NCBI GenBank assembly: GCA_021731165.1 | Contig: JAKFXY010000064.1 | Coordinates: 1 to 42,449, forward strand | From: Acidobacteriota bacterium | GTDB lineage: Bacteria; Acidobacteriota; Vicinamibacteria; Vicinamibacterales; UBA2999 | Length of the DNA stretch: 42,449 nucleotides | Reading direction: 5' to 3' | Part shown: positions 37,301-38,695 of the stretch, piece after piece | Position numbering within the stretch: position 1 is the stretch's first letter | Layout: each line of letters opens with the position of its first letter | Position numbers and translations under genes: made by a program | Notes under the pieces: model-generated | What the model saw: only the letters and a program-made list of their open reading frames with translations | Database searches by the model: none | What the model was told of the DNA's origin: nothing

Positions 37301-38695
37301 CAGCTTGAGCCGGCCCACGCGCGAGAAGTCGTACTTCTGCGGATTGAAGAACATGTTCTCGAACAGCGACCGCGAGCTGTCGAGCGTCGGTGGATCGCCC
37401 GGCCGGAGACGCCGGTAGATCTCGATGAGCGCCTCTTCGTGCGTCCGGATCGGATCCTTTTTCAGGGTCTGGCCGATGACCGCGCCAACCTCGTCACGCT
37501 CGGGGAAAAAGACGTCGATCTTCTCGACCTTCTTCTCCTGGGCCATCGAAATGACGCGCGGCGTCAGCTCCTCGTTCGCTTCGAGGATGACTTCACCCGT
37601 CGCCGGGTCCACGATGTCGGCTGCGGCAAAGGCACCCTCGAGCGCCTCGTCCACCACGCCGATGGTCTCGATGTGCGCCTTCCGCAGCGCGGCGATCGCG
37701 TTGGCGGAGATCTTCTTGCCACCCTGCACCGAGAAATCGCCCGCCTTGACGTCGCTCGCCGCACGAAGCCCGACGAGGCTGTCGCTGACGGCCCACATGA
37801 GCGTGGGGCCACCGTCGAGCAGGATGCGGTCCACCTGGTAGAACGTCCGGATGATCTCGTCAGCGCCGCGCAGCCCGAGGGCTCGCAGGAACACCGACGC
37901 CAGGAACTTGCGCTTCCGGTCGATACGTACGTACAGCAAGTTCTTCTGGTCGTACTCAAACTCCACCCAGGAGCCACGGTACGGGATGATCTGCGCCACG
38001 TAGAGCGTCTTGTCCTCTGAGTGGAAGAAGGCGCCCGGCGACCGGTGGAGCTGCGACACGATGACGCGCTCGGTGCCGTTGATGATGAACGTGCCGTTGT
38101 CCGTCATCAGCGGCACGTCGCCGAAGTAGACCTCTTGCTCCTTGATGTCGCGGATGGTCTTCACGCCGGTCTCGGGATCCTTGTTCCAGACGACCAGACG
38201 AATCGTGACCTTGAGCGGCACGGCGTAAGTCATGCCGCGCTCCTGGCACTCGTCCACGTCGTACTTGAGCTTCATCCCGACTGTGTGGCCGCAGATGTCA
38301 CAGACGTCGCCGCGGGCGGTATTCGCCTTGCCGCAGCGCTGGCAGAGCACCTGATGGTCGCCGAGCGGGTCGGCGATGAGGGTTGCGCCGCAGCCGGTGC
38401 ACGGTTTCCGCAGATGGTGCAAGCCGGCCAACTTGCCGCACTTGCATTCCCAGTTGCCGATCGAATATTCGATGAACTCCAGCGACGAGTTCTCGCGGAA
38501 GTCGCTGATCGGGAAAACCGACTTGAACACAGACTGCAGGCCGGCGTCTTCCCGCTCGGCCGACAGCCGGTTCATCTGCAAAAATCGCTCGTACGATTTG
38601 CGCTGGATCTCGATCAGGTTCGGGATGGGAACCGTGGTCTTGATCTTCGAGAAATCCTTACGCTCGCGGTAGACGTTCTTGGGAAGGCTGTACAT
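34391..38695 (-). CDS. rpoB: RNA polymerase subunit beta, with N-terminal double zinc-ribbon insertion
   Basis: The ATG at 38695 ([17 protein letters not shown]) gives 1434 residues; the frame extends to 38761 through a hairpin and is not preferred. The rifampicin region (about 560-600) reads [20 protein letters not shown] then [17 protein letters not shown], the drug-sensitive wild-type pattern. NIGLISSL, the [20 protein letters not shown] region and the C-terminal [13 protein letters not shown] are canonical. Odd: between [10 protein letters not shown] (about 80) and [12 protein letters not shown] (about 143) about 63 residues are inserted with Cys84, 86, 99, 102, 118, 121, 132 and 135. The common form goes straight from the EY-LG stretch to KYDV-EC. 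This is probably a pair of zinc ribbons. Confidence 0.98.

What the first reader, a model, noticed from the sequence alone, without database searches (positions are those of the whole stretch)
38267..38455. Double zinc-ribbon insertion in RpoB whose first unit mimics the RpoC zinc finger
About 63 residues with eight cysteines interrupt the beta subunit between [10 protein letters not shown] and [12 protein letters not shown], where common bacterial RpoB has none. The first half, [20 protein letters not shown] then CG, has Cys spacing CxC-x12-CxxC, identical to the RpoC N-terminal finger in the same operon, and shares WEC-CGK and the closing CG. The second half is CxxC-x10-CxxC. This suggests that a RpoC-type finger was copied, or arose convergently, in RpoB, possibly changing clamp or upstream-DNA contacts. 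I do not know whether this is already described for the lineage.
Basis: partly seen in the sequence, partly recalled or inferred. Interest (0 to 1): 0.7.

Follow-up and report, generated by a model that had tools for sequence, protein, structure and literature searches.

The report
Zinc ribbons in acidobacterial RNA polymerase
The RNA polymerase beta subunit of most Acidobacteriota sampled carries an extra small domain with two zinc-ribbon-like units, the first of which closely resembles the zinc finger of the neighbouring beta' subunit; by homology it sits on the part of the enzyme beside the upstream DNA, its function is untested, and a few lineages have lost it.

Summary
RpoB residues 103-165 (window 38267-38455, minus strand) form an extra eight-cysteine domain, CxC-x12-CxxC then CxxC-x10-CxxC, missing from the three PDB RpoB alignments printed and from the rpoB family model. 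It is a phylum trait: 136 of 143 acidobacterial genomes with an RpoB match span it, and a tree of 61 genomes puts it in the phylum's ancestor with about four losses. In a second phylum (Verrucomicrobiota by record title) 93 of 93 uncontaminated RpoB matches stop short of it. The first ribbon resembles the RpoC zinc finger beyond its cysteines: hhalign 96.8%, score 41.7, against at most 35.1 in 300 shuffles with Cys and two Gly fixed; 35 of 47 first-ribbon 33-mers hit rpoC_TIGR in NCBIfam (E <= 10, best 6e-4). The second ribbon does not. Copy or convergence is unresolved. By homology the domain is in the beta1-lobe/protrusion, which docks CarD and Mfd, not in the clamp. I propose an accessory Zn module for upstream DNA or factor contact; that step is inferred. 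Nine library searches found no description; Lane and Darst 2010 was not readable and may list the insert.

The parts
34391..38761 (-). rpoB, RNA polymerase beta subunit (1456 aa as called; the true start is probably the internal Met at residue 23, MYSLPKN)
   Evidence: TIGR02013 1825 bits
38267..38455 (-). double zinc-ribbon insertion, residues 103-165
   Evidence: AlphaFold2 block means 68-82 in the 627-aa fragment, 75-85 for the ribbons when folded alone
38360..38455 (-). first ribbon (ZR1), residues 103-134, CxC-x12-CxxC, resembles the RpoC zinc finger
38267..38359 (-). second ribbon (ZR2), residues 135-165, CxxC-x10-CxxC, generic zinc ribbon
34017..34091 (-). RpoC N-terminal zinc finger, the look-alike of ZR1 (Cys 70, 72, 85, 88)
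38138..38146 (-). IKE of DIKEQEV (residues 206-208), conserved strand that by recall is the docking site of the Mfd and CarD RNAP-interacting domain
   Evidence: conserved; the residue-level role is recalled, the lobe-level interaction is in PMC4593161 and PMC7864632 (passages)
36578..36709 (-). second acidobacterial RpoB insertion, residues 685-728, present also where the ribbons are lost (internal control)
   Evidence: 37-55 residues in 61 of 61 acidobacterial rows, 4-9 in 9 of 9 outgroup rows
30060..34289 (-). rpoC, directly downstream of rpoB

Best explanation
A lineage-specific RNA polymerase insertion domain: two consecutive zinc ribbons between two strands of the beta1-lobe (protrusion) of RpoB, acquired before the last common ancestor of the sampled Acidobacteriota, inherited vertically and lost a few times. 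Shown: identity, conservation, distribution in the sampled genomes, losses, resemblance of ZR1 to the RpoC zinc finger. Inferred: each ribbon binds one Zn; [quoted passage not shown] it acts as an accessory, non-essential contact surface there (ZR1, mostly basic, towards upstream duplex DNA; ZR2, on average slightly acidic, towards a protein partner or the lobe itself), and so tunes open-complex stability or factor access. My confidence is about 0.93 for the identity and distribution and about 0.35 for the functional step; the score is for the whole statement.
For: 8 Cys kept in 94 of 104 rows; of these 94, 93 have length 66 from G102 to Y167. 136 of 143 matched genomes of the phylum span it, 7 have a gap there (recounted by hand); the 7 were confirmed in sequence. 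Tree of 61 acidobacterial and 9 outgroup RpoB, insert columns left out: insert-less rows nested in the phylum, 5 changes of presence/absence. All 61 acidobacterial RpoB, the insert-less included, carry a second phylum-wide insertion, so the insert-less ones are native genes that lost the ribbons. ZR1 vs RpoC finger: hhalign 96.8%, score 41.7 over 27 ungapped columns; shuffles with the Cys fixed mean 13.2, max 29.5, 0 of 300 reach it; Cys and two Gly fixed mean 20.6, max 35.1, 0 of 300. ZR2 vs RpoC finger 19.7, ZR1 vs ZR2 18.7. NCBIfam at E <= 10: rpoC_TIGR hit by 35 of 47 ZR1 33-mers (best 6e-4), the best non-RNAP family by 5 of 47. PDB profile search with ZR1: 25 of the 60 rows shown (130 in all) span both Cys pairs and all 25 are beta'/gamma chains by position and length, one of them labelled beta (E 0.022-0.36, counted by hand). 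ZR1 net charge (K, R, D, E) above zero in 39 of 52 genomes, mean +1.8; ZR2 mean -0.7. beta1-lobe location and CarD/Mfd docking: PMC4593161, PMC7864632 (passages).
Against: Foldseek found no match at E <= 0.001 for the insert model, best 0.26, and VIA-align best Z 2.5. The five models of the insert differ in mean pLDDT (76.0 to 52.1). Loss in 7 of 143 genomes and loss of Zn ligands in two more (L096, L100) show it is dispensable, which weakens any central role. ZR1 charge is not uniformly basic (range -5 to +6). Keeping it does not need CarD: by my hand count 45 of 149 genomes show one RID match only, among them the single-contig ribbon carriers G087 and G124, whose one match lies in a frame of Mfd size. 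Other phyla were hardly surveyed.
Confidence: 0.55

Rival explanations
1. ZR1 arose by copying the RpoC N-terminal finger (or that of another bacterial beta') into rpoB, a within-operon duplication in an ancestor of the phylum.
For: Ungapped profile match beyond ligands; RNA polymerase beta'/gamma models are the only NCBIfam families that many ZR1 sequences hit; the RpoC finger is the best non-RpoB match genome-wide at E <= 0.0012 in 7 of 10 genomes (rpoC assigned by position and frame length outside G000); in the two insert-less records searched, a 39-kb Bacteroides and a 2.1-Mb Fusobacterium record, the best match of the insert profile lies in the beta' gene (by annotation in the first, by frame in the second).
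Against: No preference for the phylum's own beta' finger large enough to call; in G124, G027 and G087 the beta' finger scores only E 0.96, 0.34 and 0.32, and in G124 and G027 it is not the best non-RpoB match; in G125 only 150 of 221 candidates were scored; in the PDB the beta' hits are weak and not on top; the beta' motif VRRERMGHI after the finger is absent from RpoB; only about 27 columns to compare.
Confidence: 0.5
2. ZR1 is an independent zinc ribbon that converged on the beta' finger because of similar fold and similar role; the whole insert came as a generic double zinc ribbon.
For: Insert alone hits Pfam DZR at E 3e-4 but under the cut-off (21.3 against 27.3 bits); the best PDB match of the whole-insert profile is a double zinc ribbon protein, E 4.6e-11, over ZR2 (positions 34-58); Pfam hits of ZR1 are scattered over 38 families, none hit by more than 4 of 47, no RpoC model among the 25 shown; the top PDB match of the ZR1 profile is not RNA polymerase (E 4e-4, CxxC half only).
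Against: Non-ligand positions carry the match; no other family comes near in NCBIfam; among the PDB rows shown only beta'/gamma chains match over the whole of ZR1.
Confidence: 0.4
3. The domain is a protein-docking platform (sigma, CarD, Mfd or an unknown acidobacterial factor) rather than a DNA contact.
For: It sits in the lobe that binds the RID of CarD and Mfd (PMC4593161, PMC7864632, passages); RID matches are found in 148 of 149 genomes; ZR2 is on average slightly acidic.
Against: No partner is known; ribbon and CarD do not obviously go together.
Confidence: 0.35
4. The domain has no specific function: a neutral accretion kept by fold stability and lost now and then.
For: About four losses; decayed remnant in L067; ligand loss in L096 and L100.
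Against: Constant length and, beside the Cys for which rows were chosen, G102 and G113 in 52 of 52, V161 in 51, W104 in 50 and L163 in 49 of 52 across deep divergence point to purifying selection.
Confidence: 0.2

Closest known systems
Zinc-binding domain at the N-terminus of bacterial RpoC (beta' ZBD)
   Same: CxC-x12-CxxC, WEC-CGK start, CG close; 27-column ungapped profile match
   Different: lies in beta; lacks the following VRRERMGHI; is followed by a second, different ribbon; is lost in some lineages, whereas 72 of 73 RpoC frames found showed the finger pattern
Lineage-specific insertion domains of RpoB (SI1/betai4, SI2/betai9, betai11; BEAN/BBM folds)
   Same: embedded in a conserved domain, lineage-wide, vertically inherited, sometimes lost
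   Different: different site (beta1-lobe, near E. coli residue 76 by my recall-based count) and zinc ribbons instead of BEAN; the 2024 survey PMC11515920 lists five beta sites, none here as I read its domain names, and its main text holds no 'zinc' or 'ribbon'
Pfam DZR double zinc ribbon (PF12773)
   Same: two consecutive four-Cys ribbons; E 3e-4 for the insert alone
   Different: below the curated cut-off; ZR1 starts with CxC, not CxxC
CarD
   Same: acts at the same lobe (PMC4593161, passages); a similar role at the upstream edge of the bubble is my proposal
   Different: a separate protein with another fold; RID counts show no tie to the ribbons

Membership tests
RpoC N-terminal zinc-binding domain | four ligands CxC-x12-CxxC | tested here: met
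RpoC N-terminal zinc-binding domain | profile similarity beyond ligands | tested here: met
   weaker in 3 of 10 genomes and in Pfam not seen
RpoC N-terminal zinc-binding domain | position in beta', followed by VRRERMGHI | tested here: not met
   ZR1 lies in RpoB and is followed by a variable linker and ZR2
RpoC N-terminal zinc-binding domain | same three-dimensional fold | tested here: inconclusive
   a Thermus beta' chain appears only at Foldseek rank 37, E 2.5; VIA rows hold other chains, best Z 2.5
Pfam DZR (PF12773) | score over the curated cut-off | tested here: not met
   21.3 against 27.3 bits for the insert alone
BEAN/BBM insertion domains of RpoB | one of the five listed beta sites; TGD/E motif | tested here: not met
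   site is in the N-terminal part of the beta1-lobe (mapping to the paper's domain names is my reading); no TGD or TGE in the window's insert; one relative, L091, has a TGD in the linker, taken as chance
Lineage-specific insertion domain of bacterial RNAP | absent from other RpoB compared, general in one lineage, vertically inherited | tested here: met
   phyla beyond those named were not surveyed
Zinc protein | binds zinc | not testable with these tools
   ligand conservation and AlphaFold2 confidence only

The most novel reading that the evidence does not exclude
The zinc finger of beta' was duplicated into beta in the ancestor of Acidobacteriota and fused to a second ribbon, so that their RNA polymerase holds upstream DNA between two related zinc fingers, one on each wall; a natural series of losses and decay (clean deletions in L061-L066, a remnant in L067, ligand losses in L096 and L100) shows how such a module is discarded.
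Probability: 0.27. Interest if true: 0.7.

Novelty: new variant of a known kind. Interest (0 to 1): 0.5.

Why it matters
RNA polymerase insertions make transcription lineage-specific. Here a large environmental phylum has two extra predicted metal sites in the lobe that CarD and Mfd use, and no RpoB chain among the PDB rows I saw for the insert profile carries them (60 of 210 rows shown). Close relatives with and without the domain exist, which is a ready natural experiment, and it is a rare candidate for one RNAP subunit borrowing a module from another. It also marks the phylum.

Tried and rejected
Fold comparison of the 627-aa fragment found RpoB chains in all 50 rows shown, and of the insert alone gave weak matches, many of them zinc-binding proteins: uninformative for so small a domain. 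The RpoC fold was not among the ten VIA rows; that excludes nothing.

Mimicry across the whole insert: rejected; ZR2 scores 19.7 against the RpoC finger, no better than ligand-fixed shuffles of ZR1 (means 13.2 and 20.6; a loose comparison, since the shuffles are of ZR1).

Horizontal replacement as the cause of insert-less RpoB: rejected because those genes keep the second phylum-wide insertion and nest in the phylum.

Presence in other phyla suggested by record titles: L140 (Verrucomicrobia bin) looks like contamination, since that bin holds a second RpoB without the insert; L151 (called Betaproteobacteria) comes from a genome whose only RpoB match has the insert, so the record name is probably wrong. 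Neither was checked with marker genes.

Link to CarD: no clear link. Lineage preference of ZR1 for its own beta' finger: not found. Literature: nine searches aimed at the insert or at RpoB insertions listed no paper that describes it; a tenth was for CarD and Mfd. PMC9456514 (passages) says only that plastid RNAP lacks the E. coli inserts. Lane and Darst 2010 is not held; its numbering starts before betai4 and its alignments included Acidobacteria (PMC2939025, passages), so the insert may well be catalogued there.

Full report
What is there. The window's minus strand carries what I read from the translations as secE, nusG, rplK, rplA, rplJ, rplL, rpoB and rpoC (only rpoB and rpoC were checked against family models). 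The flanks align to RpoB chains of the PDB, while residues 104-165 are unaligned in all three alignments printed, of 88 matched sequences, and the rpoB family model has no positions for it. The E. coli, Bacteroides and Fusobacterium RpoB aligned have one to four residues here.

Where it occurs. I searched 149 genomes drawn evenly from the window's phylum with a 220-aa query that spans the insert. 143 matched; 136 match across the insert and 7 (G001, G017, G031, G044, G080, G104, G125) have a gap there (recounted by hand). The phylum is Acidobacteriota: one sampled contig (G095:C24, 69298 bases) has the length of the record JACQSX010000034.1, titled 'Acidobacteria bacterium', whose insert is 100% identical to the query row taken from G095. 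In the phylum of G162 (Verrucomicrobiota by record title; no group is told) 94 of 96 genomes matched; the best match of each of the 93 others stops short of the insert, and the only match over it is the G162 contaminant (weaker matches beyond the listing were not seen). Other phyla were seen only through the PDB chains, the plasmid collection (66 records with an RpoB match, 60 listed) and a few loci. A survey of all phyla remains undone.

How it evolved. I fetched 60 stretches, one or two per family plus every gap case. Of 61 acidobacterial RpoB in the tree, 52 have all eight Cys, two have the domain with ligands lost (L096 SCCCCCVC, L100 SSCCCCDC), one has a 26-residue remnant (L067, from G125) and six have none. 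The tree, built without the insert columns (quick LG+G4 search, SH-aLRT support only), nests all insert-less rows in the phylum and needs five changes, which I read as one gain and four losses; 18 of 67 inner branches are open and the outgroup branches are long, so the root is less sure. L064 and L065 show a clean deletion relative to their sisters L071 and L072. In L067 the first ribbon is gone, and the rest aligns by eye with the second ribbon with its last Cys pair replaced (GDEARGLVHEIGG against [13 protein letters not shown]). All 61, including the insert-less, keep a second phylum-wide insertion at residues 685-728 that the nine outgroup rows lack, so the losses are deletions in native genes.

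Is ZR1 really like the RpoC finger? Yes, and specifically. The hhalign score is 41.7 (96.8%) over 27 ungapped columns. Shuffling the other columns of ZR1 while holding the four Cys in place gives 13.2 on average and never more than 29.5 in 300 trials; holding two Gly as well gives 20.6 and never more than 35.1 in 300. ZR2 scores 19.7. In a scan of 18,950 NCBIfam models at E <= 10, 35 of 47 ZR1 33-mers hit rpoC_TIGR (best E 6e-4), 30, 29 and 26 hit three other beta'/gamma models, and no family outside RNA polymerase is hit by more than 5. Results against: Pfam showed nothing like it, 38 families, none hit by more than 4 of 47, and no RpoC model among the 25 shown. In the PDB the ZR1 profile's top match is another protein (E 4e-4, CxxC half only); beta'/gamma chains come at E 0.022-0.36, but they are the only ones of the 60 rows shown that match over both Cys pairs (25 rows, one labelled beta). 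The whole-insert profile hits a double zinc ribbon protein best (E 4.6e-11, over ZR2), and beta'/gamma chains at 0.02-0.04 over ZR1. In ten genomes the RpoC finger is the best match after RpoB itself at E <= 0.0012 in seven, one of them G125, where the RpoB ribbon is lost and the RpoC finger is best (150 of its 221 candidates scored); in G087 it is second but weak (0.32), in G027 and G124 other places score better. A direct test for origin within the phylum failed: the ZR1 model scores acidobacterial beta' fingers at 22.2 bits on average (n = 127, redundant, range 9.2-27.0), Fusobacterium 21.1, E. coli 19.6, Bacteroides 18.9. Copy and convergence both stay open; I lean slightly to copy.

Structure and place. 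AlphaFold2 on a 627-residue fragment gave block means of 68 to 82 for the insert although the whole model is poor (67.5); the insert alone gave 76.0, ribbons 75 to 85, with the five models ranging from 76.0 to 52.1. [quoted passage not shown] the RID of CarD and of Mfd bind it (PMC4593161, PMC7864632; passages read). The IKE strand, by recall the RID contact, is conserved at residues 206-208. PMC4593161 lists CarD in Acidobacteria, and RID matches were found in 148 of 149 genomes here.

How it most likely works. A zinc-stabilised accessory domain beside upstream DNA. ZR1 is basic in 39 of 52 genomes (mean +1.8), ZR2 slightly acidic on average (-0.7), and I infer a DNA-facing first ribbon and a protein- or lobe-facing second. 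The repeated losses say the role is helpful, not essential. This step is inference, about 0.35.

What is known. PMC11515920 (abstract, sections 2.2 and 2.6 and passages read) reviews RpoB insertion domains, lists five sites, none of which is this one as I read its domain names, and does not use the words zinc or ribbon. PMC2939025 (introduction and passages read) gives E. coli betai4, betai9 and betai11 and reports these from Acidobacteria or Acidobacteriaceae too. Lane and Darst 2010, the source of the numbering, is not held and may list this insert. Nine searches of the open-access library listed no description (listings only for the papers not named above).

Verdict. Observation confirmed; interpretation partly supported; a new variant of a known kind, a lineage-specific RNAP insertion, made more interesting by its likeness to a finger of the partner subunit.

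Noticed in passing
36578-36709 (-), RpoB residues 685-728: A second insertion of 37-55 residues in 61 of 61 acidobacterial RpoB aligned, against 4-9 residues in 9 of 9 outgroup rows; even more universal than the zinc ribbons. Nature unknown.
   Followed up: partly
L067 and L059 (G125, one 7.48 Mb contig, by recall Luteitalea): Decayed remnant of the domain: first ribbon deleted, last Cys pair of the second replaced.
   Followed up: yes
L096 (G059) and L100 (G055): Domain kept at full length but with Zn ligands lost: Cys 1 and Cys 7 in L096; Cys 1, 2 and 7 in L100.
   Followed up: partly
L140 / G162: A bin named Verrucomicrobia holds two RpoB, one of acidobacterial type with the insert, one without: looks like contamination.
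   Followed up: partly
L151 / G163: A genome named Betaproteobacteria whose only RpoB match has the acidobacterial insert: probably misnamed.
   Followed up: partly
34391-38761 (-): The rpoB ORF as called starts 22 residues before the likely start at Met23.
   Followed up: no
G156:C42:5719-7482: One in-frame TAG inside the rpoB match of a related genome; sequencing error or real, not checked.
   Followed up: no
41992-42067 (-): tRNA-Trp upstream of the secE-nusG cluster.
   Followed up: no
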